From contig NZ_QWKI01000012.1 in NCBI RefSeq assembly GCF_009911645.1, forward strand, positions 1-45,322: a stretch of 45,322 nucleotides of DNA, in the 5' to 3' direction. Shown piece by piece: positions 29,081 to 40,178 of this stretch. Position 1 is the stretch's first letter. The number at the start of each line of letters is the position of its first letter. The stretch is from Pseudoflavonifractor sp. 60. GTDB taxonomy: Bacteria; Bacillota; Clostridia; Oscillospirales; Oscillospiraceae. The position numbers and the translations under genes are program-made. A model generated the notes under the pieces. That model did not search any database, was not told where the DNA came from, and was given only the letters and a program-made list of their open reading frames with translations.

Positions 29081-29542
29081 ATGAAAAAGAGTATCATGGC
29101 CCTTGCCCTGGCCTTCGCCCTGGCAGGGACCCTGACAGCCTGCGGCACCGACCGAAATCCCAACGACGCCAACGCAGGCAATAACAGCGGCACCAACAGC
29201 GGCGTCAACTCCGGAACCAATTCCGGGAGCACCTCCGGCAATGGCTCCAGCGCCTCCGCCGGTCAGGTGAGCCGGCGGTACAACACCACTGCCAGCTCGG
29301 GCAGAAGCTATCTCAACGACGGCCAGTACACCGCCGACGCCAACGGCCAGGTCTACGGCGGCAACGGCAGCGCCCTCTCCCGGGATCTGACCCGGGGGGC
29401 CCAGGATATCGTCCGGAACACCGAGGATGTGCTGGACGATATTGGCCGGGGCGTGGGCAACGCCGCCCAGGATGTCACCGGAACCGGCAACTACTCCGGT
29501 ACCCCCAGCTGGGAACCCGACTCCAGCGCGGTGCGCTATTAA
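29081..29542 (+). CDS. Lipoprotein with Asn/Ser/Gly-rich linker
   Basis: Protein of 153 aa. The signal peptide (MKKSIMALALAFALAGTLTAC) ends in lipobox LTAC with Cys21. It is followed by a low-complexity Asn/Ser/Gly/Thr linker (about residues 28-60) built from repeats like NSGTNSG, then a domain with repeated Asp/Gly/Arg turns (GAQDIVRNTEDVLDDIGRGVGNAAQDV). GGGAGGA precedes the ATG. It is anchored outside the membrane and its role is unknown. A strong terminator follows. Confidence 0.8.
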   Translation: MKKSIMALALAFALAGTLTACGTDRNPNDANAGNNSGTNSGVNSGTNSGSTSGNGSSASAGQVSRRYNTTASSGRSYLNDGQYTADANGQVYGGNGSALSRDLTRGAQDIVRNTEDVLDDIGRGVGNAAQDVTGTGNYSGTPSWEPDSSAVRY

Positions 29543-29546
29543 CCCA

Positions 29547-29582
29547 AACAGGACGGGCCCTAGCGCCCGTCCTGTTTTCTTG
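29547..29582 (+). terminator. Rho-independent terminator
   Basis: AACAGGACGGGC (29547-29558) pairs perfectly with GCCCGTCCTGTT (29565-29576), followed by TTCTT. It ends the lipoprotein transcript. Confidence 0.9.
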
Positions 29583-29607
29583 ACAACAGAGCATATTTTG
29601 GTATAAT
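29580..29607 (+). promoter_or_regulatory. Consensus promoter cut by the Mu-like element
   Basis: Perfect TTGACA (29580-29585) and TATAAT (29602-29607), 16 bp apart, with the element starting 4 bp after the -10 box. Before insertion the transcript would have continued into the sequence now at 37916, running antisense to the 40-aa peptide gene at 37958-38080. Now it reads into the left end of the element, antisense to its late genes. Confidence 0.8.
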
Positions 29608-29610
29608 AAA
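29606..29610. repeat. Target-site duplication, left copy
   Basis: ATAAA directly before the TGTGG end of the element; the identical five bases follow the other end at 37911-37915. Five-base duplications are what Mu-type transposition produces. Confidence 0.85.
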
Positions 29611-29634
29611 TGTGGGGAGACACGCAAAACGTAA
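29611..29634. other. Transposase-recognised end, distal side
   Basis: The terminal TGTGG is followed by GACACGCAAAACGTAA (29619-29634), the same core as the sites at the other end (GGACACGCAAAACGTAA consensus). Only one clear copy is visible at this end. Confidence 0.7.
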
Positions 29635-29720
29635 TTGAAGAATCTTGAAAGACACGGTTTTATCTGCAATTAAACGATGTATAAATGGGAATAACTGAAA
29701 ACAAATCGAATAAGTATGCA

Positions 29721-29759
29721 CAGCGGTCCACCTCCTTCATTCATGGAGATGGGTCGCTG
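29721..29759 (-). terminator. Hairpin after the gp27 gene
   Basis: CAGCGGTCCACCTCC (29721-29735) and GGAGATGGGTCGCTG (29745-29759) form an imperfect 15-bp hairpin 7 nt after the gp27 stop. It lacks a strong T run but could define the end of the late transcript. The AAGGAGG inside it resembles a ribosome binding site, but the frame behind it runs out through the element end and is probably not a gene. Confidence 0.4.
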
Positions 29760-29766
29760 CTGCGCT

Positions 29767-30333
29767 TTATTCAAGGTCTGCATTGGCTATTCGGGTACGG
29801 GCCTGATTGAGCACGTCCCTCAACTGTGCGGCCAAATCCGGGTACTGTCGAACCTGGGCCAGCAAGTCCGCCTCCATCTGGTCAAAGGCAAGTTCCGCTT
29901 TCCGTTTGGTAGCGTAGTCTGTCCTTTTGCGGTCAGCCTCAGCCTTGGCCAACTGGACGAACAACCGCCCCGCCTTTTCAATAGGCATATTGTTGAATTC
30001 TTCCTCAGCGGATGAAATCTTCTGCAACAGCCCGCTTTTAAGAATGGCGCTGGTAGCCTCGGTGGTGTCCAAGTCGGGGTTTCTACCGATAACGTCAATG
30101 ATGTACTTGGTCTTTTCCAGGTCATCGGCGACACGCTGCGCCGATTCGAACACTTTGAAGGCATAGCGAGATAAGGATGATTGGCTGACTTTGTAGCCCT
30201 GCCCCGCGAGCCATGCAACGATATCCGCATAACTCATGTTGTAGTTTACCAACCGCTCATTGACGCCGTCCAGCACAGACTTGGGAAGCTGGTATATCTT
30301 TGCGTCCGAACGCGGCTTCCTGGGCTTGCCCAT
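29767..30333 (-). CDS. DUF3486 protein (Mu gp27-like, small terminase-type)
   Basis: Protein of 188 aa. The N-terminus (LPKSVLDGVNERLVNYNMSYADIVAWLAGQGYKVSQSSLSRYAFKV by segments) has the HTH-like pattern of DUF3486, the Mu gp27 family thought to be the small terminase subunit. The rest is a long helical, coiled-coil-prone region. TGATG overlap couples it to the gene before it. It is the last gene before the element end, whereas in Mu-like phages gp28 (large terminase) and the portal gene come next; these are missing. Confidence 0.8.
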   Translation of the reverse strand: MGKPRKPRSDAKIYQLPKSVLDGVNERLVNYNMSYADIVAWLAGQGYKVSQSSLSRYAFKVFESAQRVADDLEKTKYIIDVIGRNPDLDTTEATSAILKSGLLQKISSAEEEFNNMPIEKAGRLFVQLAKAEADRKRTDYATKRKAELAFDQMEADLLAQVRQYPDLAAQLRDVLNQARTRIANADLE

Positions 30334-30644
30334 CACAGATCAATCCCCGATTCCGGGTCACCGCCGTTCTCAATGAACCGAACGCCCTTCGTGGTCAACC
30401 GCGCCACGCCATCCTGCCTGTAGGCGGTGTCGGGCGTGATCTTCTTGTTGGTAAACTCAATGAAGCCCATATCATAGAGGTACTTCAACGGTTCCCAAAT
30501 ATCCGGGTCGGACACCAGCCCATCCCGGACAAGGCTATTGGAGATGCGACGGACGGCCAAAGCGTTGTGATAGCCCTTTACCAGCATACGGAGGATATAC
30601 CCCCGGACGGCGGCGTTGTGACCGCCGATTTTCTCAAAATCCAT
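30333..30644 (-). CDS. Mu gp26-like phage protein, winged-helix-like
   Basis: Protein of 103 aa with a winged-helix-like pattern (GYILRMLVKGYHNALAVRRISNSL, ARLTTKGVRFIENGG). Small proteins of this kind precede the DUF3486 gene in Mu-like phages. The ATG at 30644 has GGGAGGG 7 nt upstream; a TTG two codons earlier is less well placed. It overlaps the next gene by one base and the frameshifted gpI tail by 11 nt. Role in the virion or packaging is unproven. Confidence 0.65.
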   Translation of the reverse strand: MDFEKIGGHNAAVRGYILRMLVKGYHNALAVRRISNSLVRDGLVSDPDIWEPLKYLYDMGFIEFTNKKITPDTAYRQDGVARLTTKGVRFIENGGDPESGIDL

Positions 30645-31569
30645 GGTCAAACCCTCCCTTAGAGATTCCCATACTTTGCGATATCCTCAGCAGACAGCCC
30701 CTTAGCTCGTGCGCCCTGGAACGATGATGCGGCATCTGGGGAAGCCTCTCCGGGCAAACCTCACCCATGGGCACGACCTGGGGCGCAGCCTTAAACCATG
30801 ATGTGAAGCCGTCCAAGTCCTTCATTGCGGACTGGAACGCCCAATCACGTTGGAAAGGCATTACTTTTCCGCTTCTCAGCGCCTCATCCACCGCGCTATC
30901 TACCTTCATCATGGTAACCTCAAATTGGCAAGCGTCCGCTTTAAGTTTCAGCGCTTCCCGCCCTTCCAGCAAGGTGGCGACGGCCTGATAGATATCTTCC
31001 ATGGTGGCGGTGTTGGGGTCAAGCTGTAACAGCTCCGCCAATGCTTCCATACCCTTACCGCTGCTGTCCGCCTCGCCCTGATCCGCGCCGCTCTCGCCCT
31101 CGCTGGGCTTCTCGCTACAGGCAATGGGCATCATAGCGTCAATAGCGGGGGTGTTGGTGAGGGCGGCGGAATGGAGCGCAACCACCCGCCGCTCCTTGCC
31201 TTGGGTCAGGACAACCGGGGACAGGTAGCGGTACTCCCTGTTTTTCAGATATTCCGCCGCCCGTTCCGTCCAGTCCACAGCGCCGTAGATACCGTCGCTT
31301 CGCAGTACGATATCCTTGATCCAGCCCGCCGCCGGGGCCTGCATATCCTTCAAGGTCTGGTGCTCGTAGTCAATGGGGATTTGGAGCTGCCGCTCCGTGA
31401 ACTTGCAGCGGATAGACTGGAAGGATTCGTTATCCACCAGGAAATCCCCTTTTGTGCTGTGAACCAGCCCCAGGGGGAGAAGCTTTACCAGCTTGTGGGG
31501 CGTTTGGGTACTGTAGCCGTTTTCCTCAAAGGGAAGGGAATTGCTCAGGATGATGTAATTGATATCCAT
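30634..31569 (-). CDS. Mu-like prophage I protein (protease/scaffold), frameshifted tail
   Basis: Head maturation protease/scaffold of the Mu gpI family, 311 aa as read. The N-terminal protease part shows IPIDYEHQTL and GAVDWTERAAEYLKNREYRYLSP, typical of the family, and the C-terminal half is the scaffold. Near 30759-30761 a base is missing (GAGGTT for GAGGGTT): restoring it gives an end of ...GARAKGLSAEDIAKYGNL and a stop at 30659, the expected family C-terminus. As it stands the last 40 residues are out of frame and the stop is at 30634. The ATG at 31569 follows the gpT stop by 11 nt. Confidence 0.8.
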   Translation of the reverse strand: MDINYIILSNSLPFEENGYSTQTPHKLVKLLPLGLVHSTKGDFLVDNESFQSIRCKFTERQLQIPIDYEHQTLKDMQAPAAGWIKDIVLRSDGIYGAVDWTERAAEYLKNREYRYLSPVVLTQGKERRVVALHSAALTNTPAIDAMMPIACSEKPSEGESGADQGEADSSGKGMEALAELLQLDPNTATMEDIYQAVATLLEGREALKLKADACQFEVTMMKVDSAVDEALRSGKVMPFQRDWAFQSAMKDLDGFTSWFKAAPQVVPMGEVCPERLPQMPHHRSRAHELRGCLLRISQSMGISKGGFDHGF

Positions 31570-31580
31570 AGCGCCCTCCC

Positions 31581-32498
31581 TTATGCCTTGGCGGGCATAT
31601 CCGCCTCGCCGGTGGAACCAAAGGCCAGCTGCCACAGGCCATACCCGGCGTTGCAGCGGGCATCCACGCCATAGATAAACTCCTTCTTCATAAAAACGTT
31701 ATCGTCGGTGGGGCTGTCTTTCGCAACAAGCTGGGCCTTGCGGCGGTTCTGGAAGATGAAGGGCTTGACGGGGCGCTTGGTGCACAGCAGGAACCACTGC
31801 TCCGGGTTAGCGGCCAGCTCCGGAACTACCAGCAACTCGGCGGTTCCCTTGTAGATGTTGACCTCCTGGTGAATTTCGTCAACCATGAGGATGGTACGGG
31901 CAATGGCTTCTTTCTGGGGAGCCACCACCAACAGATCGGGGACGATGTTCATAACCTCGCCCTGGTCGTTTACCAGGCACATCATCTGTGTACGGGCCGC
32001 GCCGTAGCTGTCGGGCGTAAGCTTGTACGTCCCCTTGTTGCTCTGAGGCTTGACCTTCGTCCCCTCAACGGCGGGGGTGTGGTTGTCGCTGATGAAGGGC
32101 TTGCCGTCGAAGCACAGCTCAGTAAAGGAACGGGGAAACAGACCGAACACCAGCTTGTCAGGGTGCTTCCGGGCGCTGTAGGCCAAATCCTGGAACATGG
32201 GTTTGTAGACGCCGATGCAGTCATCCTCCAAATCGTTGCGAGGGACGGACACGGTGGCCTCGAAGTCCTTGTTGCGGATGGTGTAGCCGTAGGCGGTCAG
32301 GCTCTTGATCTCCCTGTCCCCGATCCACTCCCGCATGGAGGGGACTGCTCCCAACCATGCGTAGCTCTCGTCCCGCGTCTCACTGGGAACCTCCATAGCC
32401 ACGCGGGGGTACTGAGCCTCCATCTCCTGGAACGCCTTGTTGAACACTGTGTTGAAGCTCTGGAACGCTTCTCGGATTGTGCCACTGTTGATAATCAT
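31581..32498 (-). CDS. Mu-like prophage major head protein (gpT)
   Basis: Major capsid subunit family gpT, 305 aa. Landmarks include FNTVFNKAFQEM near residue 15, WLGAVPSMREWIGDREIKSL and the C-terminal GVDARCNAGYGLWQLAFGS. Length is normal for the family and no frame problem is visible. The ATG at 32498 has CAGGAGGAC upstream. In Mu gpI comes before gpT; here gpT is transcribed first. It follows the Mor-type gene after only 17 nt, so capsid production may be directly under Mor-driven transcription. Confidence 0.85.
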   Translation of the reverse strand: MIINSGTIREAFQSFNTVFNKAFQEMEAQYPRVAMEVPSETRDESYAWLGAVPSMREWIGDREIKSLTAYGYTIRNKDFEATVSVPRNDLEDDCIGVYKPMFQDLAYSARKHPDKLVFGLFPRSFTELCFDGKPFISDNHTPAVEGTKVKPQSNKGTYKLTPDSYGAARTQMMCLVNDQGEVMNIVPDLLVVAPQKEAIARTILMVDEIHQEVNIYKGTAELLVVPELAANPEQWFLLCTKRPVKPFIFQNRRKAQLVAKDSPTDDNVFMKKEFIYGVDARCNAGYGLWQLAFGSTGEADMPAKA

Positions 32499-32515
32499 TT
32501 GATTTGTCCTCCTGT

Positions 32516-32818
32516 TTATTCAGATATGGGGTAAGCCGGTTTTTGCCGTACAATTTGCTGAACAAGCCGCTGGGTGATGCCATATCTTTCTGCAAGTTCT
32601 GGAATGTTGTAACCGTTGTACGCCTCTTTGATTTTCTGGTCTCTGAGCGGACGCAGAATACTTTCCGCTTGAGGCATATAGAAGGTTGAACCGCCAACCA
32701 GTACAGCCAATTTTAGAAGATTGTCCGCCCCGATTTCTTCAGCGATTCTTTTACAAATCCCATCGGGCAGCATGGAAGATGTAAGTTCATTTGTCCATGG
32801 CTCCAACACGCTATACAC
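32516..32818 (-). CDS. Mor-family transcription activator-like protein
   Basis: Protein of 100 aa matching the Mor/C activator pattern: an N-terminal dimerisation part (ICKRIAEEIGADNLLKLAVLVGG) and a C-terminal HTH (IPELAERYGITQRLVQQIVRQ). Mor turns on the middle/late promoters of Mu. It starts with GTG at 32818 or at 32809; the ribosome binding site AAAGGCGG favours the latter. It is placed immediately before the gpT gene, an unusually tight link. Confidence 0.75.
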   Translation of the reverse strand: MYSVLEPWTNELTSSMLPDGICKRIAEEIGADNLLKLAVLVGGSTFYMPQAESILRPLRDQKIKEAYNGYNIPELAERYGITQRLVQQIVRQKPAYPISE

Positions 32819-33030
32819 CGCCTTTCAGCAAATAAATTGCTTTTTAATAGTAACGCTATTTCTGCGAAAAGTCCTGTTGAAACACTTCTTGGAATTATTT
32901 CTAATCGAACTTTAAATGCAACAGCAAGACCCTATCATAGGCAATATTCACCACCTGTTCAATTCGCCGTTTAGAGGGTGCATAAACGGCTTTTGTCCGC
33001 AGATGGTCACATATACACACAGGCGCTTAA

Positions 33031-33060
33031 ACCCCCGTTATCACGCGTGATAACGGGGGT
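33031..33060 (-). terminator. Perfect 30-bp palindrome downstream of early operon
   Basis: ACCCCCGTTATCACG (33031-33045) and CGTGATAACGGGGGT (33046-33060) are exact reverse complements without a loop. It lies 10 nt after the stop of the gene at 33071 and separates the early genes from the Mor gene. On the minus strand only TTTAA follows, so it is either a terminator or a protein-binding site. The rest of 32819-33030 holds no gene I can see. Confidence 0.55.
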
Positions 33061-33070
33061 AGAAACAAGA

Positions 33071-33376
33071 TTATTCTTTGAGCTCCCGGAACACTTTCAA
33101 AACCTGCTCCGGAAATTTGGAATCGGAGATATGCCGCTCCATATCGGCCCCGGTCTGAACCCCGATATAAAAGCCCAGCAGAGACGAAGCCGAGACGATC
33201 CCGTTGATGGCATCATCGACCTCAACCTCCAATCGCCTATCGTTGGGGGCCATGCTGCCGATCAGCGCGAAGGCGTCAGCCTTCATGCGCTGTATGTAGC
33301 TGTCCCTCTCACTCAGCTCGCCGAACTCCTCGTGGAACTGCTCCCGTAAAGCGTCCAAAACTTTTTTACTCAACAT
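33071..33376 (-). CDS. Hypothetical phage early protein
   Basis: Protein of 101 aa, acidic and helical, beginning MLSKKVLDALREQFHEEFGE. The ATG at 33376 has AAGGAGGAA upstream. A central segment rich in small residues (GIVSASSLLGFYIGVQTGADM) resembles helical bundle proteins that often accompany the neighbouring gene. No function recognised; it is in the early operon behind the transposition genes. Confidence 0.6.
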   Translation of the reverse strand: MLSKKVLDALREQFHEEFGELSERDSYIQRMKADAFALIGSMAPNDRRLEVEVDDAINGIVSASSLLGFYIGVQTGADMERHISDSKFPEQVLKVFRELKE

Positions 33377-33390
33377 TCCGTGGTTCCTCC

Positions 33391-33690
33391 TTACTTCATG
33401 CCTTCCAGAATCATCCGCATAGCGATTTTGTATCCGCAAACGAAACGCCGCTGCTCGGCTAAGCGCAGTTCATCTGCAACCATCTCCTGATAAGCCTCAA
33501 ACCATTTTTTCTGTTTGGGATTGAGGCTATCCACTAAGGCATCAACGCTGTCACGGTATTTTTCAGCAATGTCTATGTCCTCCTGGCAGTGAACCGACGT
33601 ATACTGCCAAAGGACCTCGCCCAGCTCCGCGATGGTCTCATTGTTCACTCTGCTGATATCCAGGTTGTCAAAGTTAAACTCTGCCACCAA
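33391..33690 (-). CDS. Hypothetical phage early protein (DUF6809-like)
   Basis: Protein of up to 99 aa, helical. The C-terminal QKKWFEAYQEMVADEL and FVCGYKIAMRMILEGM pattern resembles DUF6809, a family of uncharacterised small proteins in clostridial phages and plasmids; the match is by eye. Start is TTG at 33690 or GTG at 33687, both behind AAAGGAG. It lies 14 nt upstream of the next gene in the same operon. Confidence 0.6.
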   Translation of the reverse strand: MVAEFNFDNLDISRVNNETIAELGEVLWQYTSVHCQEDIDIAEKYRDSVDALVDSLNPKQKKWFEAYQEMVADELRLAEQRRFVCGYKIAMRMILEGMK

Positions 33691-33765
33691 AAAACACTCC
33701 TTTCAAATATCGGGCTTGCCCTATCTTGAAAAACTGTGAACCAGATGATATACTGTAGGGGACTT

Positions 33766-33861
33766 CTAGGAGGAAGTTTCCCCAGCGCCTGGGCGGCTGT
33801 TATTTGCGGTAGCAGCCGCCCTTTTCTCATTTATCCTGTCCGCTGTTGTGTGGGCATTCAT
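33766..33861 (-). CDS. Possible 31-aa peptide
   Basis: A 31-codon frame (MNAHTTADRINEKRAAATAN at its start) with GGGGAGGTTTGCGC before the ATG. It contains a hairpin, GGGCGGCTG ... CAGCCGCCC, in its coding region. It lies in the otherwise empty gap between the MuB-like gene and the early hypothetical genes. It may be a real small gene or a leader around an RNA hairpin. Confidence 0.3.
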   Translation of the reverse strand: MNAHTTADRINEKRAAATANNSRPGAGETSS

Positions 33862-33926
33862 GCGCAAACCTCCCCTAACAGCTGCCGGTGGGTATCACGA
33901 AGGTGCTTCACCGTAAGGGTGCTCCC

Positions 33927-34766
33927 CTAAGCGGCGGCAAATTCCGCTGCCACGTTATACAGCTTTTTGGCGGTGCGTAGGCTCTCGCCGTGGGCCAGCT
34001 TCAGCAGATAGCCGATACAGCTTTCACTCAGACCGGGGAACATGGCTTCCATTTCCTCGATTTTGTAATCGTTATATATCTTTTTGCGGATGACAATCCG
34101 GGTACGGAGCTGGTCAAACTCATAGCTGCGGCGTCCGGCTTTCATCTGACGGTAGATTTTGTCGTTGCCGGATAGGACGATACCCACCCCGGCCAGATCA
34201 TTGAGATTGCGCACGGCCTGGAGTGCGTCCAGTGACAGGTGGTCGGCCTCGTCAATAATAATCAGGCGGTTTGTCCCGGCCAACTGCTCCACCAGAGTAT
34301 TCATAAGTGCTGCTTTCCGGCCCGGAACCTGACGCCCCACTTGCTGGCAGATCAGGCCCAGTACGGCGGTGGCCGACGTAGTACAGGCGTTGGCTGTGAT
34401 GAAGATAACTCCGGTATTCGTTTCAGCGTAGTGGCGAAGGGCAGTCGTTTTCCCCGCTCCTGCGTCACCACTCACTAAGGTGATATCGTTGTGCTGGTGC
34501 GCATAGAGACAGGTGAAAAGAACCTCCCGCGTGTTGTAGAGCTCGGGGTAGAAAGGCGTCTTTGAAACAGTGTTTAAACGCTCTTTACCGACGGTTAGAT
34601 ACTGGTTGATGGATTTGGCGACTTCCTCATTGTCCCCCGCGTAGCAACCATTTAGGAACTGCGAGATAACGGACGTGGAAAGCCCCGTTTCGCGGGATAT
34701 CTGCCGCTGTGATTTGCCGCTCCGTTCCATAAAATCGGCAAGGGCGGCTCTAGTTTCGGCAAGCAT
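33927..34766 (-). CDS. MuB-like transposition ATPase
   Basis: AAA+ ATPase of 279 aa. An N-terminal helix-turn-helix (about residues 18-40, QRQISRETGLSTSVISQFLNG) is followed by Walker A GDAGAGKTT (100-108) and Walker B LIIIDEAD (168-175) and a C-terminal helical domain. MuB binds target DNA as an ATP-dependent filament, recruits the MuA transpososome and gives target immunity. The ATG at 34766 has GGAGGG upstream, and the gene begins 13 nt after the transposase stop. Confidence 0.9.
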   Translation of the reverse strand: MLAETRAALADFMERSGKSQRQISRETGLSTSVISQFLNGCYAGDNEEVAKSINQYLTVGKERLNTVSKTPFYPELYNTREVLFTCLYAHQHNDITLVSGDAGAGKTTALRHYAETNTGVIFITANACTTSATAVLGLICQQVGRQVPGRKAALMNTLVEQLAGTNRLIIIDEADHLSLDALQAVRNLNDLAGVGIVLSGNDKIYRQMKAGRRSYEFDQLRTRIVIRKKIYNDYKIEEMEAMFPGLSESCIGYLLKLAHGESLRTAKKLYNVAAEFAAA

Positions 34767-34779
34767 TTCATTCCCTCCT

Positions 34780-36588
34780 TTACGCTTGCTTTTGGTAGAA
34801 ATCTAACAGTGTGGCGCTTACACTATCCTCCTCTCGAATGCGCCGGGCGGTTTCGGTGCGGTCTGTGGCTTTGAGGATAGCAGTGTTCCGAGCTGCCTGG
34901 GGTGTTATATGCTCTACAATATCCGGCTCTCCGGATTCGTTGAACACCTTCTCCATGAGTTGATTTCTGGCAATGATTTCATGGATATCTACATCACGGG
35001 TGGGCTTGTACTTCTGAACCATAGTCCGCGCTTTCTTCTTTTCTTTTGCAGCCCTGATGTAGTCCTCCTCGCTGGTATGGCGGAACGGGGTGCGGATTTT
35101 AGCCTCTGCCATACAGATAGCGCGATTTTCCATATCAAAAACAGCTATTTTATCAATGTTATCCGGGTCATAGACCACAATGACACGTTCGCCCTGATGG
35201 TAAAGAAGTGCATCGTTGTAATAGTTGTTGTTCTTAATGGAAATCCCGTTTTTGTGGACGACGCGCTCCTCCGAGTTGCCACAGAGAAGGCGTAGGGCAT
35301 CCAGATCACTGACAACCCGCTTTACTGCCAGATTTTCAGCGTATACTTGGTCTGGGCACTTTCCGCCCATGTCTATACCATCGCTTTTTTCTTGGTTGTA
35401 CTCCGCTATGTAGGCGGTCAGTAGCTTGACAAACTCATCCAGCGTGGGGGCCTGTGCCACAATCTCTTTATTGGATATCTGCATACACTCAGGCCTGATT
35501 TTGGCGTTGCAGCCCGTATAAGTGCCGAACCGACGGCTGAAACGGTTGGTAAATGTACCGAAAAATCGCTCCACAGTTTTAGCCTGACCATGGTAGGGCG
35601 TTGCGTATATTTGACCTATACCAAGCTGGTTTACCAAAGACATAGGATAGTCCTTGCTGAAGCTTTTGGACCGATAATCCTTACCATTGTCAAAATAAAC
35701 CTCGTTAGGCACTCCGTTTTGTTCCACGCCCAGACGGAAGCATTTCTTGACAGCTGTTGCGTTAGGGTCAGCGTCCCGGACCAGGAACGATACTACACGG
35801 TTAGAGCGTGCGTCGAAGAACACCGTCAGCCATGGCCGGATTGCCCTGGCTCCGTCTGCGCTCTTAACAAACACATCTACAAGATGGTGGTCCGAGAACC
35901 AGATATCATTTGATGCAATGTCGAGCTTGCTGCGCTCCATGGAAGGAAGAGCGTCATTGAACGCTTTTGGGCCGTCCCTGTAGTACAGAACCGCATAATA
36001 GGGAATGGTTTTGACCTTGCGCTCAAATGCCTTGCAGGAGGGGATATCCGGGTATTCCATCCTGGTAACATCATAACAGAGTTTGACACCGCGCTTCTGC
36101 TGAGTCATATAGAGTGAATAGAACAGCTCCCATGCTTCCTCGGGAATGGTGTCCTTTCCCCGGTTGTGCCCGCCGCGCTGGTCGATCAAGGCCACAACAT
36201 CTTTCTCTTGGTACTTTCTCTGCCAACGGAACAACTTGCTTTTGGTGATAGCGTCCTCAGTGGGGTTATTGGAATTGAACCAAGATACAAAATCATCTGG
36301 AGATAGACCCTTTTGCTGGTACTGCTCCACAACCCACGCTTTGGCGTTGGCTTCGTCCCGCTGTTTTCCTGTAAATTGCAGGATATCCACAGGAGGAGGT
36401 ACTTCCCTGCGATATCGGGCCTGTGCGCTCTCTGGAAGTGATTCTAAGGCGATGCGCAGTTGTTTGCCACCCCGGCCCTTGCCGTTGACATAGCGGTATT
36501 GGTATCTATTTTGTTGCACAGCTTTTTTGACGGCGCTATCTGTAACTCTGCATAAAGCAGCCACGTCTGGTACTGTTAGCCATGTCAA
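34780..36588 (-). CDS. MuA-like DDE transposase
   Basis: Transposase of 602 aa. The N-terminal Mu-type winged HTH (residues 1-60, MTWLTVPDVAALCRVTDSAV) binds the ends or enhancer; the catalytic core has Asp233 (SDHHLVDVFV), Asp300 (VYFDNGKDY) and Glu340 in GQAKTVERFFG, which aligns with the GQAKPVERAFG of Mu itself. A C-terminal Mu-type beta-barrel and a Lys-rich tail follow. The start is TTG at 36588, 8 nt behind AGGAGGTGAT. It is shorter than MuA, with one N-terminal domain fewer. All three catalytic residues are present, so it is likely active. Confidence 0.93.
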   Translation of the reverse strand: MTWLTVPDVAALCRVTDSAVKKAVQQNRYQYRYVNGKGRGGKQLRIALESLPESAQARYRREVPPPVDILQFTGKQRDEANAKAWVVEQYQQKGLSPDDFVSWFNSNNPTEDAITKSKLFRWQRKYQEKDVVALIDQRGGHNRGKDTIPEEAWELFYSLYMTQQKRGVKLCYDVTRMEYPDIPSCKAFERKVKTIPYYAVLYYRDGPKAFNDALPSMERSKLDIASNDIWFSDHHLVDVFVKSADGARAIRPWLTVFFDARSNRVVSFLVRDADPNATAVKKCFRLGVEQNGVPNEVYFDNGKDYRSKSFSKDYPMSLVNQLGIGQIYATPYHGQAKTVERFFGTFTNRFSRRFGTYTGCNAKIRPECMQISNKEIVAQAPTLDEFVKLLTAYIAEYNQEKSDGIDMGGKCPDQVYAENLAVKRVVSDLDALRLLCGNSEERVVHKNGISIKNNNYYNDALLYHQGERVIVVYDPDNIDKIAVFDMENRAICMAEAKIRTPFRHTSEEDYIRAAKEKKKARTMVQKYKPTRDVDIHEIIARNQLMEKVFNESGEPDIVEHITPQAARNTAILKATDRTETARRIREEDSVSATLLDFYQKQA

Positions 36589-36661
36589 AGGGTATCACCT
36601 CCTGTCGAACTAAGTTCATGCTATGCAAACAGGAAAATTTCTATTGGACAGATTCAGAATT

Positions 36662-36904
36662 CTAAGATTCTTTTCCAAATAAGGCCGCAACCAGATCGAA
36701 GGGGTCAAGGCCCAGAGGCTTGGCAATCTGTTTGAGCGCCGCCAACGTCGGGATAGCACGGCCATTCATGATAGCGCATAAGTAAGTTTTTGATATCCGG
36801 GCCTCCTGTGCCAACCACTTTTGCTGTCTGTTCATTTCTTTCAAGCGTTTGCCTATCATGGTTCCCAATGGTGGCTTGTTGTTTAGGCTTGTTGTTCTCG
36901 ACAT
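36662..36904 (-). CDS. XRE-family early regulator (Ner-like)
   Basis: Helix-turn-helix protein of 80 aa, first gene of the minus-strand early operon ahead of the transposase. HTH at about residues 18-72 (GKRLKEMNRQQKWLAQEARISKTYLCAIMNGRAIPTLAALKQI by parts). AAGGGGGTGAAG precedes the ATG. In Mu the equivalent position holds ner, which shuts off early and repressor transcription. That role is inferred from position. Confidence 0.8.
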   Translation of the reverse strand: MSRTTSLNNKPPLGTMIGKRLKEMNRQQKWLAQEARISKTYLCAIMNGRAIPTLAALKQIAKPLGLDPFDLVAALFGKES

Positions 36905-36916
36905 AACTTCACCCCC

Positions 36917-37012
36917 TTGAAATCCCTAGCGGTTTCCGATATAATAAATTGTCTGCTTCTATTATAGTAGCGGATACCGATATTGTCAATAAAAATTTAT
37001 CGGTTTCCGATA
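36917..37012. promoter_or_regulatory. Divergent promoters with three repressor operators
   Basis: Repressor promoter (+): TTGAAA (36917-36922), 17 bp, TATAAT (36940-36945). Early promoter (-): TTGACA (36984-36989), 17 bp, TATAAT (36961-36966). Three 15-bp operators of form TATCGGnnnCCGATA occur: 36927-36941 (in the + spacer, overlapping its -10 box), 36968-36982 (within the - spacer) and a perfect copy, 36998-37012, next to the repressor ribosome binding site. The layout is that of a phage lysogeny switch. Confidence 0.88.
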
Positions 37013-37023
37013 GGAGGAGTATC

Positions 37024-37623
37024 ATGTCAACAGTGAATGAGCGATTTAGGGATATTCGAAAAGAATTGGGCTTTAATCAGCAACAGTTTGCTTATGAGTT
37101 AGGTATTTCCCAAACACACATCTCGGGTATCGAAAACGGAAGGGATAATCCTTCAAAGAGCTTACTCAAGTTCCTATGCGCAAAATTCTCAGTCAATGAG
37201 GAATGGATGTTAGAGGGTACTGGAACCCCCTTGCCTGAATGGGATATAACAACGGATAAGGGAGCTATAACAAAGTATAATGTTTTAAGAGTTTCCTTTG
37301 AAAAGATGCTCCTTGCTGCCACTGGAGACGATCTTGTCTGTATGGTACAAGCATTTTGTTATCTTGTTGGCTCTTTGGGTGCTCGTAAGCTAGATTCGCA
37401 GGAGACCACAGCGTACCGGAGAGCACTTTGCTCTATTTTAGATGATTTAGAAAACTTGACTATGATGGTATCGGCTGACACCGTACTGCCCTCAAAAACT
37501 GATGCAATGGGATGGGTAGACTTCAAAAATTCCTGCTCAGCAGCGACAAACCGCATCAATCAATCGGTAAAAGATGCAGTCAATGTTTATCTCGAAAAGT
37601 ACGGCGAAGAAATGAAACTATAA
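37024..37623 (+). CDS. Phage repressor, XRE family
   Basis: Regulator of 199 aa. N-terminal HTH at about residues 5-60 (RFRDIRKELGFNQQQFAYELGISQTHISGIENGRDNPS by parts) and FSVNEEWMLEGTG after it, as in cI-like repressors of Firmicutes phages. The C-terminal 120 residues are helical and not a LexA-type peptidase domain, so induction by self-cleavage is unlikely. The ATG at 37024 has TAGGAGGAG directly joined to the third operator. It is the only + strand gene in the element and the AT-richest one. Confidence 0.88.
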   Translation: MSTVNERFRDIRKELGFNQQQFAYELGISQTHISGIENGRDNPSKSLLKFLCAKFSVNEEWMLEGTGTPLPEWDITTDKGAITKYNVLRVSFEKMLLAATGDDLVCMVQAFCYLVGSLGARKLDSQETTAYRRALCSILDDLENLTMMVSADTVLPSKTDAMGWVDFKNSCSAATNRINQSVKDAVNVYLEKYGEEMKL

Positions 37624-37660
37624 CTCGAATATTTATTCGCTAATATAAATTTTTATCCAG

Positions 37661-37910
37661 TTACGTTTTGCCCGTCTTTTTTCCCTTAATCAATTCCCTT
37701 TATCAATACGCATAAAACCCCGCAAGCCCTGTGATATCAGGCACTTGCGGGGTTTTTCGTGTTTTATGAAGGATTCCCTTAGTCGTGTGTTCAGTTACGT
37801 TTTGCGTGTCCTTTTTCCCTTAGTCAAACTGGGCGTTTCTCCTACAGCCACAACGGTTTTCGGCATTTTTGCAACTAAGGGAAAAATAGCGTTTTGCGCG
37901 TCCGGCTACA
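37661..37910. other. Transposase-binding sites at the repressor-proximal end
   Basis: Two 33-bp direct repeats, at 37661-37693 and 37795-37827, start TTACGTTTTGC and end TTTTTCCCTTA(A/G)TCAA. The end itself carries GCGTTTTGCGCGTCC (37890-37904). All three read the same way and match the single site at 29619. Half copies of CCCTTAGT lie at 37776 and, inverted, at 37873-37881. Three spaced sites at the repressor side resemble the L1-L2-L3 set of Mu. Confidence 0.75.
37714..37757. terminator. Rho-independent terminator after repressor gene
   Basis: AAAACCCCGCAAG (37714-37726) pairs with CTTGCGGGGTTTT (37744-37756) with a T run. It lies between two transposase-binding sites and isolates the repressor transcript from the flanking DNA. 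Confidence 0.85.
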
Positions 37911-37915
37911 ATAAA
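37911..37915. repeat. Target-site duplication, right copy
   Basis: ATAAA directly after the CTACA end of the element, identical to 29606-29610. The junction CTACA + ATAAA creates TACAAT (37907-37912), a fair -10 box for the downstream sequence, although no -35 box is at the right distance. Confidence 0.85.
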
Positions 37916-37957
37916 AGCAGAAGGGCTCCGTAATAGACGGTCAGCCCATCGATTTAG

Positions 37958-38014
37958 TCAACCAAAACAGTTGACCGCTCGGGGACCGGCCGGGCGGTCA
38001 ACTGTTTTGGTTGA
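37958..38014. repeat. Perfect 21-bp inverted repeat
   Basis: The arms 37958-37978 and 37994-38014 are exact reverse complements (TCAACCAAAACAG... and ...CTGTTTTGGTTGA) around a 15-nt loop rich in CCGG. The repeat would form a long hairpin in RNA from either strand. No T run follows, so it is unlikely to be a plain terminator. Confidence 0.8.
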
Positions 38015-38080
38015 TAGGTACATGAGTATCGCCACACCTGCCAGGAAACAGATGGCTTTCCACATCTGTTTCTTCCACAT
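37958..38080 (-). CDS. 40-aa hydrophobic peptide, candidate type I toxin
   Basis: A 40-codon frame with a strong ribosome binding site (GGGGGAGGTGG, 6 nt before the ATG at 38080). The product has a Lys/Trp-rich start (MWKKQMWKA), a hydrophobic core at about residues 9-22 and a basic, Pro-containing tail. The size and form are those of membrane-acting type I toxins. The strong promoter now cut off at 29580-29607 would have made an antisense RNA over the whole gene. The last 20 codons contain one arm of a 21-bp inverted repeat and the stop codon lies in the other arm. No homologue is recognised with certainty. Confidence 0.4.
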   Translation of the reverse strand: MWKKQMWKAICFLAGVAILMYLSTKTVDRPAGPRAVNCFG

Positions 38081-38163
38081 TTGCGCCACCTCCCCCTCTT
38101 TCAATTTTGCTAAAGGGGTAATAACGGTGGACTAACCGCCTTATGTAACAGCGCACCTTCCGT

Positions 38164-38186
38164 CCCGCCTGGCTGGCGGGCATTTT
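38164..38186 (+). terminator. Rho-independent terminator
   Basis: CCCGCC (38164-38169) and GGCGGG (38175-38180) form a short hairpin followed by CATTTTT on the + strand. It would end the presumed antisense RNA about 270 nt after its original start. Confidence 0.6.
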
Positions 38187-38219
38187 TATGGTATCACAGG
38201 GGGCACATTTTGTGAAATC

Positions 38220-40178
38220 TTACCGTTTTTTCTTCGCCCAACCCGCCTTTTTTGCGGGGCGGACGGGGCTCTCTTTTTTCTCCACTCTGGTGCGGGTATC
38301 GGCGCGGGGCTTTTTCGTCCGCTCCTGTCCGGTCCGTCTTCGGGGCGCAGGCGCACCGGAGGGCTCCATCCCCTTGTCCGGCTTCACCAGGCAGCGCTTG
38401 CCGTAGCCAATCAGGTCCTCCCGGCCTGTCCTGTGGAGAGCCTCCAGCACCAGCTTGCGGTTCTGGGGCTTGCGCCACTGCATCAGCGCCCGCTGGAGGG
38501 CCTTGTCGTGGGGCGTCCTGGGGACAAACACCGGCTTCATAGTGCGCGGGTCCAGGCCGGTATACCACATGCAGGTGGCCAGGGTGCCGGGGGTCGGATA
38601 AAAATCCTGGACCTGTTCAGGCATATGTCCCTGCTTGTTCAGCCACTCCGCCAGCTGAACCGCGTCCTCCAAGGTACAGCCCGGGTGGGAGGAGATGAGA
38701 TAGGGCACCAGGTACTGGTCCTTGCCGTAGCGGCGGTTCAGCTTCCCATATTTCTCCCGAAATTTCTCGTACACCTCAATGTGGGGCTTGCCCATATAGT
38801 CCAGGGTGTGGGCCACGCAGTGCTCCGGGGCCACCTTCAGCTGGCCGGAGATGTGGTGCTGGACCAGGTCGGTAAAAAACTCCCCGCTGGGGTCCTTCAT
38901 CAGGTAGTCGAAACGGATACCGGAGCGGATAAATACCTTTTTCACCTTGGGGATCTCCCGCAGCTTCCGCAGGAGCATCATATAGTCGGTGTGGTCGGCG
39001 TCCAGATTGGGACAGGGCTCCGGGGCCAGGCAGGACCGGTTCCGGCACATGCCGCTTTTCAGCTGCTTCTGGCAGGAGGGGCGGCGGAAGGTGGCGGAGG
39101 GCCCGCCCACGTCGTGGATGTAGCCCTTGAAGCCGGGGTGCCCGGTGAGGGCGCGCACCTCCCGGATGACGCTGTCGTGGCTGCGGCAGGAGATGGTTCG
39201 CCCCTGGTGGAAGGCCAGGGAGCAGAAATTGCAGGCCCCGAAACACCCCCGGTTGTGGGTCACCGAGAAGCGCACCTCCTCGATGGCAGGCACACCCCCC
39301 AGTGGGTCGTACATGGGGTGGGGCTCCCGGACATAGGGCAGCTCGGCGACCCGGTCCAGCTCCGCTGTGGTCAGGGGGAGGGCGGGGGGATTGACCAGGA
39401 GGAAGCGGTCCCCGTGCCGCTGGAGGATGGCCCGCCCCGACACGGCGTCGTGCTCCTGATACTCCACCATATTGGCCCGGGCGTAGGCCGTCCTGGAGGC
39501 GGACACCTCTTCAAAGGAGGGCACCTCAACCCGGGGATAGGCGCACATGCCGGGGTCTCGGACGGCCACGCAGGTCCCCCGCACGTCGGTGAGCTCCGAA
39601 ACCGGCGTCCCAGAGGCCAGTCGGGCGGCAATTTCCAGGGTGGCTGTCTCCCCCATGCCGTAGGAGAGGAGGTCCGCCTGGGCGTCGAAGAGAACGGAGC
39701 GGCGCACCTTGTCCTCCCAGTAGTCGTAGTGGGCAAAGCGGCGCAGGGAGGCCTCCAGTCCACCCAGTACGATAGGGATATCCCCAAAGGCCTCCCGGAC
39801 CCGGTTGGAGTAGACGATGGAGGCATGGTCCGGACGCAGGCCGGCCCGCCGTCCGGGGGAGTAGGCGTCGTCCCGGCGGCGCTTTTTAGCGGCGGTGTAG
39901 TGGGCCACCATGGAGTCGATATTGCCCGCCCCAATGAGGACCCCCAGCCGGGGCCGGCCCAGGGCGGCGAAGGGGGCGGCGCTGTGCCAGTCCGGCTGGG
40001 CCAGCACGGCGACCCGGTAGCCCTCCGCCTCCAGCAGCCGCCCGATGATGGCGCAGCCGAAGGAGGGGTGATCCACATAGGCGTCCCCCGTAATCAGCAG
40101 GAAATCGTAGCTGTCCCACCCCCGGCGGACCATGTCCTCCCGGGTCACAGGGAGAAATAAATCGCGGTCAAAGGCCAT
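38220..40178 (-). CDS. YgiQ family radical SAM protein
   Basis: Protein of 652 aa. An N-terminal domain (about residues 1-290, with [18 protein letters not shown] and [18 protein letters not shown]) precedes the radical SAM core with the CFGACNFC (CxxxCxxC) cluster motif near residue 315, and a DUF3362-type C-terminus ([12 protein letters not shown]) ends in a Lys/Arg-rich tail. Members bind a 4Fe-4S cluster and SAM; the substrate is unknown. The ATG at 40178 has AAGGAGGGG upstream. It is a single-gene unit. Confidence 0.93.

What the first reader, a model, noticed from the sequence alone, without database searches (positions are those of the whole stretch)
29606..37915. Exact ends and 5-bp target duplication of an 8,300-bp Mu-like element
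The sequence gives TGTGG at 29611 and CTACA at 37910, terminal 21 bp agreeing at 16 positions in inverted orientation, and ATAAA on both sides. Mu-type transposition is known to duplicate 5 bp. At 8.3 kb this is far smaller than a Mu-type prophage (35-40 kb) yet has a full transposition and lysogeny module.
Basis: partly seen in the sequence, partly recalled or inferred. Interest (0 to 1): 0.9.

Follow-up and report, generated by a model that had tools for sequence, protein, structure and literature searches.

The report
Mu-type transposable phage satellite with capsid genes
This 8.3-kb stretch of a bacterium's genome looks like a parasite of viruses: a small element that jumps like bacteriophage Mu, carries its own copy of some viral head-shell genes but no motor, tail or lysis genes that I could find, and probably needs a full-size Mu-like virus to travel between cells.

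Summary
In detail: window 29611-37910, 8,300 bp, TGT...ACA ends, ATAAA on both sides. It is not a local deletion product. G068 has the same unit (8,281 bp, 89% identity, duplication TATGG); L038 is 3 mismatches from that copy at an unrelated site (ATAGG). Genus relatives show the empty site, flank alignments overlapping by exactly 5 bp in L145.

Besides repressor, Ner-like, MuA, MuB and Mor-like genes it carries head genes gpT, protease/scaffold I, gp26 and small terminase gp27, in the order T-I-26-27; full-size Mu-like phages have 26-27...I-T. No large terminase, portal, tail or lysis gene was found. Satellite gpT forms one clade (18 rows, 100/99) apart from 80 other rows; dN/dS is 0.03-0.28 in nine genes. 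I read it as a transposable, helper-dependent phage satellite. Particle transfer and small capsids are inferred, not shown.

New detail: iterons in the repressor-side end change in step with the recognition helix of MuA's N-terminal domain, as if a transpositional enhancer were embedded in the end. The results listed by my open-access paper searches name no Mu-type satellite.

The parts
29611..37910 (.). whole element, 8,300 bp; its repressor-side ('left' in Mu terms) end is at 37910
   Evidence: ends, TSD, full-length homologues, empty site
29606..29610 (.). target duplication ATAAA, copy 1
37911..37915 (.). target duplication ATAAA, copy 2
29611..29631 (+). terminal inverted repeat, TerS-gene side, with one end-site core CGCAAAACG at 29623-29631
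37890..37910 (-). terminal inverted repeat, repressor side; first end-site core 37890-37898
37798..37806 (-). second MuA-type end-site core CGCAAAACG
   Evidence: similar sites in relatives
37664..37672 (-). third MuA-type end-site core (GGCAAAACG)
37683..37881 (.). four 8-9 bp iterons (CCCTTAGT/ACTAAGGG) at 37874-37881, 37817-37824, 37776-37783 and 37683-37690 (the last reads ATTAAGGG)
   Evidence: letters covary with the MuA N-terminal helix
37705..37765 (.). G+C-rich hairpin with T-run (terminator-like) inside the left end
   Evidence: (I3), sequence
37024..37623 (+). repressor (Cro/CI-type HTH), from the ATG; the listed ORF starts at TTG 36949
36927..37012 (.). three TAGCGGTTTCCGATA-like repeats between the divergent repressor and Ner-like genes: candidate operators
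   Evidence: D3; operator role inferred
36662..36904 (-). Ner-like small HTH protein, 80 aa
   Evidence: HTH_3
34780..36588 (-). MuA-type DDE transposase, 602 aa
   Evidence: Mu-transpos_C; phrog_310 E 1.5e-104
33927..34766 (-). MuB-type ATPase, 279 aa
   Evidence: AAA_22; phrog_296
33391..33690 (-). orf99, DUF6809, unknown
33071..33376 (-). orf101 (within the 122-aa ORF 33071-33439), unknown, no family hit
32516..32818 (-). Mor-type late transcription activator, 100 aa
   Evidence: Mor E 9e-15; phrog_532
31581..32498 (-). gpT, major capsid protein, 305 aa
   Evidence: Mu-like_gpT E 4.5e-96; phrog_371 E 7e-99
30634..31635 (-). head maturation protease/scaffold I, 333-aa ORF; its last ~20 residues are out of frame with the relatives checked
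30333..30650 (-). gp26-like winged-helix protein, 105 aa
29767..30336 (-). gp27, small terminase subunit, 189 aa
   Evidence: Phage_Mu_Gp27 E 1e-23; phrog_426

Best explanation
It is a transposable phage satellite. SHOWN by sequence: an 8.3-kb unit with Mu-type ends, repressor, Ner-like protein, MuA, MuB, a Mor-type activator, and a partial head module (major capsid protein, protease/scaffold, gp26, small terminase), with no large terminase, portal, tail or lysis gene found; the unit moves as a whole, and its head genes are a separate lineage under purifying selection. INFERRED: it sits silent under its own repressor; when derepressed (by damage or by a helper) it replicates by Mu-type transposition into many sites; its Mor protein turns on the T-I-26-27 genes; its own capsid protein and scaffold build a head matched to about 8.3 kb plus short host flanks; its small terminase (with the winged-helix gp26) brings the helper's large terminase to the satellite's end; portal, motor, tail and lysis come from a Mu-like (Mushu-like) phage. 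Packaging would start from integrated copies, as in Mu, so no excision or concatemer is needed. MuA's N-terminal winged helix probably binds the iterons in the left end as a built-in transpositional enhancer.
For: Mobile unit: full-length 89% copy in G068 with TSD TATGG; L038 differs from it by 3 mismatches, at a non-homologous site with TSD ATAGG, in another species-level genome; L042 contig = exactly one element; empty site. Separate lineage: 18 satellite gpT rows form one clade, 100/99, against 80 other rows; 13 gp27 rows form one clade, 100/100; dN/dS 0.03-0.28 for nine genes in the pairs that were not saturated. Order: T before I in 5 of the 78 further gpT loci (L054-L131), all in contigs of 5.0-9.2 kb, 4 of the 5 with MuA and MuB beside them; I before T in 70 of 78; neither in 3. 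Size: of eleven gpT-bearing elements with both ends placed, seven measure 8,253-8,300 bp, and the others 8,134, 8,042, 7,974 (L054) and 7,045 (L044, which lacks I, 26 and 27 and has damaged MuA and MuB genes); L047, with unrelated capsid, scaffold and neck genes, 8,293. Candidate helper: Mu portal PF06074 in 4 of 14 carriers (3 strong) versus 6 of 200 family genomes (4 strong, carrier G068 among them) (Fisher p 0.001-0.004 in the three versions run); G068 has a Mu-like phage region with TerL, portal, I, T and tail sheath. Iterons and MuA helix change together.
Against: No virion, induction or transfer was observed. The window's own genome has no Mu portal and no second gpT, and 10 of 14 carriers show no Mu portal, though most are metagenome-assembled and may lack it by incompleteness. 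The window copy's protease I has lost its conserved C-terminus by a frameshift, so this copy may be defective. Small capsids rest only on size and on the presence of capsid genes, and size is not constant in the wider group: L025 about 9.8, L048 9.4, L049 10.7 kb. Relatives differ in what they carry (tape measure, portal), so head-building is not the common denominator. The order T-I-26-27 is not kept everywhere: L055 and L056 read 26-27-Mor-T-I, with MuB and MuA on the other strand.
Confidence: 0.8

Rival explanations
1. Deletion derivative: a 35-40 kb Mu-like prophage lost most late genes here (or in a recent ancestor) and kept its ends and early genes.
For: Early genes plus a few late genes is what deletions leave; the window copy's protease I is frameshifted.
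Against: Late genes are in an order (T-I-26-27) that no simple deletion gives; own gpT and gp27 clades; purifying selection; similar size in copies 70-99.9% identical; MuA is below 60% identical to every one of 195 phage records that match it; no larger prophage with these ends was seen in 400 family genomes searched with an exact end pattern.
Confidence: 0.04
2. Autonomous transposon that uses the head proteins as weapons: gpT/protease/small terminase poison the assembly or packaging of infecting Mu-like phages and so protect the host, while the element spreads by transposition onto other mobile DNA, not in virions.
For: No helper in the window's genome; head genes could act as dominant-negative parts; the Mor-type gene could also misfire a phage's late genes.
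Against: A matched set (capsid, scaffold/protease, small terminase, its winged-helix neighbour) kept together with a similar element size fits packaging better than poisoning; relatives carry tape measure or portal instead; near-identical copies in different species-level genomes imply transfer; Mu portals are over-represented in carriers.
Confidence: 0.12
3. Helper-packaged satellite that fills full-size helper heads (headful of element plus ~30 kb host DNA), the head genes serving only competition.
For: Mu and hankyphage package host flanks by headful (passages of PMC12135933).
Against: Would not explain the 8.0-8.3 kb size of most gpT-bearing copies or why capsid and scaffold genes are kept.
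Confidence: 0.15

Closest known systems
Bacteriophage Mu / Mu-like gut phages (Mushuvirus mushu, Faecalibacterium phage FP_Mushu, 36.6 kb)
   Same: MuA/MuB transposition, repressor, Mor-type activator, gpT, protease I, a DNA-binding protein before the small terminase; gpT 54% identical to FP_Mushu
   Different: 8.3 kb; no large terminase, portal, tail, endolysin or holin found; head genes in reverse order (FP_Mushu: DNA-binding protein, TerS, TerL, methylase, portal, minor head, protease, structural protein, major head); separate gpT and gp27 clades; MuA about 29% identical to its best phage record, Bacillus phage BalMu-1
Capsid-forming PICIs (cf-PICIs)
   Same: satellite-encoded capsid protein, protease and small terminase with borrowed tails (definition read as a passage of PMC10690885)
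   Different: cf-PICIs also encode portal, connectors, large terminase and HNH (same passage); that they are integrase-type islands is recalled; this element encodes none of those extra parts and moves by a DDE transposase
Mulch/Flayer satellites of Streptomyces phages
   Same: satellites with their own head genes
   Different: they encode TerL, TerS, portal, capsid and scaffold; MulchRoom has a tyrosine integrase; 'transpos' does not occur in that paper (passages)
SaPI/P4/PLE capsid-redirecting satellites
   Same: idea of small heads and, in some SaPIs, an own small terminase (passages of PMC10690885)
   Different: P4 and SaPIs use scaffolds on the helper's capsid (PLE recalled and abstract start); here the element brings its own capsid protein
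AH14b, satellite of Pseudomonas phage AH14a
   Same: small prophage packaged with a larger one
   Different: it has a tyrosine recombinase like that of P4 and uses the helper's capsid (abstract start and passages of PMC4936722)
Defective Mu prophages and mini-Mu
   Same: Mu ends around fewer genes (recalled)
   Different: this is a separate lineage with re-ordered, selected head genes

Membership tests
Mu-type transposable element | MuA-type DDE transposase and MuB-type ATPase | tested here: met
Mu-type transposable element | TGT...ACA ends with repeated transposase-type sites and 5-bp target duplication | tested here: met
   (site binding itself not tested)
Mu-type transposable element | insertion at different, unrelated sites | tested here: met
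Mu-like phage (autonomous virus) | large terminase, portal, tail, lysis genes | tested here: not met
   11 genes cover 86% of the element; their proteins were run against Pfam and/or PHROGs (10 in each), orf101 without a hit in either; no such gene
Mu-like phage (autonomous virus) | head genes in order gp26-gp27-...-I-T | tested here: not met
Phage satellite | carries a subset of virion/packaging genes and lacks others needed for a particle | tested here: met
Phage satellite | lineage distinct from possible helper phages and maintained by selection | tested here: met
Phage satellite | co-occurrence with a possible helper | tested here: inconclusive
   4 of 14 carriers vs 6 of 200 family genomes; absent in the window's genome
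Phage satellite | mobilised in particles by a helper | not testable with these tools
   needs culture and induction
cf-PICI | own portal, connectors, large terminase, HNH | tested here: not met
   definition
PICI / P4-like (integrase-type islands) | site-specific integrase | tested here: not met
   only a Mu-type transposase

The most novel reading that the evidence does not exclude
A superfamily of transposable satellites lives on Mu-like phages in gut Clostridia. They share MuA/MuB early genes with a left-end iteron code read by MuA's N-terminal domain, and each branch hijacks a different part of the virion: its own capsid and scaffold in reverse gene order (window type), an unrelated capsid set (L047), a portal (L048), a tape measure (L049; L025 with its own scaffold but no capsid protein). 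They replicate by transposition and are packaged, from integrated copies, the window type into small heads of about 9 kb.
Probability: 0.6. Interest if true: 0.9.

Novelty: new variant of a known kind. Interest (0 to 1): 0.8.

Why it matters
A 2024 review of mobilizable elements lists P4-like, PICI, cf-PICI, PLE, PICMI and other satellites; 'phage Mu' and 'Mu-like' do not occur in its text (PMC11389934, passages). That transposable phages have parasites of their own was not in any listing of my searches. If true, satellites arose on transposable phages too, and packaging from integrated copies would make each particle carry a sample of host DNA. The iteron/helix covariation gives a natural test of what the MuA N-terminal domain recognises. 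A transposase cluster whose representative is 96% identical spans 778 contigs and bears a source name from Acutalibacter muris, so a cultured carrier may exist.

Tried and rejected
Local deletion product: rejected (see rivals). Ends by statistics alone: too weak (11 pairs as good). A second copy or a helper in the window's own genome: none found. Order-wide search for the transposase: only the window's genome of 394 at E 1e-60, so the element is rare; further viral scans added little. Iterons as repressor sites: rejected, since the repressor, whose gene lies between iterons and transposase gene, does not follow them (WIN/L042 repressors 84% alike with different iterons, WIN/L040 28% alike with the same). 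Iterons as sites of the small terminase: disfavoured, L047 has the window's iteron with a 30% identical TerS. Rfam: no match in 29400-38300 at gathering scores. Fold of orf101: low confidence, not used (pLDDT 67). gp26 model: confident winged helix (pLDDT 93), but no PDB match at E 0.001 or better (best 0.014).

Rows dropped: gpT table 100 rows, tree 98; L155 and L158 were left out as repeats of L037 and L044. gp27 table 61 rows, tree 60; L152 (61 aa) fell out. Satellite labels were given by me from gene order before the trees. Iterons were read by me from the k-mer listing, not by a blind program, and one string was entered per element. Results against a clean code: L026 holds, besides four CCGCAATA-type copies, ACTAAGGG and ATTAAGGG; L025, L041 and the window have degenerate copies; L040 has only two. 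In the sliding scan the best windows start at MuA residues 33 (partial r 0.71), 17 (0.58) and 41 (0.54), but windows starting at 161-177 also score 0.43-0.53, unexplained. The MuA tree has only 4 of 14 starred branches; starred branches alone force 2 changes of the main iteron class, the best tree 5.
Full report
OBSERVATION. By itself the match is weak evidence: 11 of 889,057 position pairs with a 5-bp repeat, this one included, reach at least 16 of 21. Inside the ends lie copies of the core CGCAAAACG: three on the repressor side (one with a mismatch) and one on the other.

WHAT IT CARRIES. Reading from the repressor side: repressor (+), then, all on the minus strand, Ner-like HTH, MuA-type transposase, MuB-type ATPase, two small unknown proteins, a Mor-type late activator, gpT (major capsid protein), protease I, gp26-like protein, and gp27 small terminase. 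Eleven genes fill 86% of the element. None is a large terminase, portal, tail, endolysin or holin gene by Pfam or PHROGs. gp26 is predicted with high confidence to be a winged helix; the gene of FP_Mushu just before its small terminase is annotated as a DNA-binding protein.

REVERSED HEAD GENES. In full-size Mu-like phages the order is gp26, gp27..., I, T (L031, L033, L035; FP_Mushu, with TerL and portal between). Here it is T, I, gp26, gp27, all on one strand. Among the 78 further gpT loci kept from a viral-contig scan (80 kept of 525 relatives; L023 and L026 had been fetched before), 70 have I before T, 5 have T before I, 3 neither. The five (L054-L058) are contigs of 5.0-9.2 kb; in four of them MuA and MuB are read beside the head genes. 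L054 has the full order T-I-26-27; L055 and L056 have 26-27-Mor-T-I with MuB and MuA on the other strand; in L057 and L058 gp26 and gp27 were not found.

THE UNIT MOVES. G068, of the same family but another genus, has 8,281 bp at 89% identity with TSD TATGG. L038, in another species-level genome, differs from that copy by 3 mismatches, at an unrelated site with TSD ATAGG; L023 and the contig end L174 give two more flanks; no homology was found between the L028 flanks and those of L038, L174, L023 and L037. Others: L024 8,253 bp, TSD CTTCG; L023 8,281, L037 8,288, L042 8,287 (a contig that is the element exactly); L040 8,134, L026 8,042, L054 7,974 and L044 7,045 without an exact duplication. 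L044 lacks I, gp26 and gp27, its MuB match has a gap and its MuA frame holds a stop: a decayed copy. L041 has the early genes and left end but no head genes within the fetched stretch; its genome has a satellite-type gpT on C32, by number and length probably the same contig, some 19 kb from the left end, as if another element had entered it. Contigs that start or stop at or near the element's end (L023, L037, L042, L174) are what an assembler gives for a sequence present at several sites; that is inference. Empty site: 56 of 61 genomes of the genus search match the right flank; in L145 the left and right flank alignments overlap by exactly 5 bp; in L134 they come within a few bases of meeting and in L136 within about 20. 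The duplicated ATAAA overlaps a TATAAT-like box preceded by TTGACA.

A LINEAGE, NOT DEBRIS. A maximum-likelihood tree of 98 gpT rows puts all 18 satellite rows in one clade (100/99, 100% of 200 bootstrap trees) on a stem of 0.24 changes per column; the root is unknown and the bootstrap had not quite settled. The clade includes L054-L057, whose transposases are only 31-34% identical to the window's: head and transposition modules have been exchanged. Thirteen satellite gp27 rows also form one clade (100/100). dN/dS (Nei-Gojobori, up to five pairs per gene) lies between 0.03 and 0.28 for the nine genes tested, gpT 0.03-0.08 and gp27 0.04-0.11; five gene/pair values were saturated and gave none, and the protease frame of the window copy is shifted at its end.

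RELATIVES WITH OTHER CARGO. L047 (MuA 57%; 8,293 bp, TSD GTTGT) has an unrelated major head protein (phrog_422), scaffold (phrog_172), neck protein and small terminase. L048 (MuA 53%; 9,364 bp, TSD CAATC) has a small terminase and a portal (phrog_533). L049 (MuA 48%; 10,694 bp by a weaker end match of 12 of 24, TSD AAAGT) has a 1,154-aa tape-measure protein (phrog_1533) and no head gene or small terminase that I recognised. L047, L048 and L049 share a gp26-like family (phrog_25462). L025 (MuA 78%; about 9.8 kb) has protease I, a 772-aa tape-measure protein (phrog_28), gp26 and gp27 but no gpT; its protease ends in CKQLGINERDLIQYG, closer to the G068 phage protease (CKQLGVSQEDLEKYG) than to the gpT-bearing satellites (ELMGLSAEDIAKYG), as if it scaffolded the helper's capsid protein. 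Roles are inferred from these annotations.

HELPER. Searching 14 carriers (the window's genome and those of L037-L049) for the Mu portal gave 4 (3 strong, 1 weak); 200 family genomes gave 6 (4 strong), G068 included. Fisher tests on three versions of the table gave p 0.001-0.004, with G068 taken out of the background; genera were not matched, the window's genome stands in both sets, and background genomes were checked for satellites only by the DNA search. A phage-type gpT was also found in G259, where no portal was. G068 has a Mu-like phage region reading TerL, methylase, portal, head morphogenesis, I, T, neck, tail sheath and tube, cut by the contig end (functions read by me from the ORFs, with I, T and portal supported). 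The window's genome has neither portal nor second gpT; a review passage notes genomes with such mobilizable elements but without any possible helper (PMC11389934).

HOW IT MAY WORK. Mu packages by headful with 50-150 bp of host DNA on its left and about 2 kb on its right; the gut hankyphage 29-31 bp and 1-2.3 kb (passages of PMC12135933). A satellite that transposes replicatively needs no excision. If it used full-size heads, each particle would hold some 30 kb of host DNA; capsid plus scaffold genes, together with a length of 8.0-8.3 kb in ten of the twelve elements that carry a capsid gene and have both ends placed (L047's unrelated capsid set included; L054 at 7.97 and L044 at 7.0 are the exceptions), suggest instead a dedicated small head. 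This step is inference.

LEFT-END CODE. The first 250 bp on the repressor side hold up to four 8-9 bp iterons (near 30, 88, 128 and 222 in window-type copies; near 30, 125-135, 141-151 and 245 in L047 and L048), interleaved with the end sites. Iteron letters differ between elements and follow the MuA N-terminal helix: DSAVKKA/DSAIKKA/ESAIKKA with GACTAAGGG (8 of 17 rows, L047 included although its MuA is only 57% identical); GERAVR with GACTAAGGA (4); ERAVQLG with GACTAACGA (L024); ERTVRRN/ERTLRRN with ATTGCGGA (L026, which also holds two copies of the first kind, and L054); L048 and L049 each their own. On a tree of MuA residues 70-550, L041 and L044 pair (88/99), and L040 lies with L042 and L045 (100/96) next to L043; both times helix and iteron switch together. 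Partial correlation of helix and iteron distance given the rest of the protein is 0.52, reached by 3 of 5,000 permutations. The repressor, whose gene lies between, does not follow. [quoted passage not shown] So I read the iterons as an enhancer placed inside the end. Binding is untested, and 17 rows of one family are few.

KNOWN OR NEW. Ten paper searches, of which eight (all but 57 and 91) bore on satellites, showed no Mu-type or transposable phage satellite among the papers listed (2 to 20 per search, titles and abstract starts); only open-licence PMC papers are held, so this is a limited statement. In 50,697 phage records no match to the window's gpT (214 records) or MuA (195 records) reaches 60% identity. 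cf-PICIs and the Streptomyces satellites are the nearest in logic (PMC10690885, outline and passages) but carry their own large terminase and portal. I therefore file it as a Mu-type transposable element that most likely works as a phage satellite, a new variant of a known kind.

Noticed in passing
window 30634-30760: The last ~20 residues of protease I in the window copy are out of frame; 11 of 11 gpT-bearing relatives checked keep the C-terminal motif (LMGLS/LLGLS.ED..YG). This single copy may be assembly-defective.
   Followed up: yes
window 32516-32818: The Mor-type gene is swapped independently of its neighbours: 58-59% identical in L028/L037/L038 but 92-99% in L024/L040, while gpT beside it is 92-97% in all five. 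Possibly matched to different helpers.
   Followed up: no
L067 (IMG/VR, 12,186 bp): A different small Mu-type contig with MuA, MuB, Gam- and GemA-like ORFs (my reading), an amidase, gpT, Mor and a 770-aa tape-measure protein, no portal or large terminase seen; its gpT lies outside the satellite clade. The same IMG genome number also has a 32.7-kb contig with gpT (L097). Perhaps an independent satellite, or a cut prophage.
   Followed up: partly
L024 2352-8325: Beside this satellite lie an N6-DNA methylase-like ORF, an HTH gene and a 1,044-aa ORF with an NTPase-like motif, a defence-island look (my reading of the ORF list).
   Followed up: no
window 37916-38220: The 300 bp right of the insertion match several other places in this genome and in other genomes of the genus, so they belong to a repeat; TTGACA-16-TATAAT precedes the insertion; no Rfam match.
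   Followed up: partly
window 33031-33060: Perfect 15-bp inverted repeat ACCCCCGTTATCACG/CGTGATAACGGGGGT between orf101 and the Mor gene, 97% conserved in G068.
   Followed up: no
MuA residues ~161-193: A second stretch of the transposase also correlates with iteron letters (partial r 0.43-0.53); unexplained.
   Followed up: no
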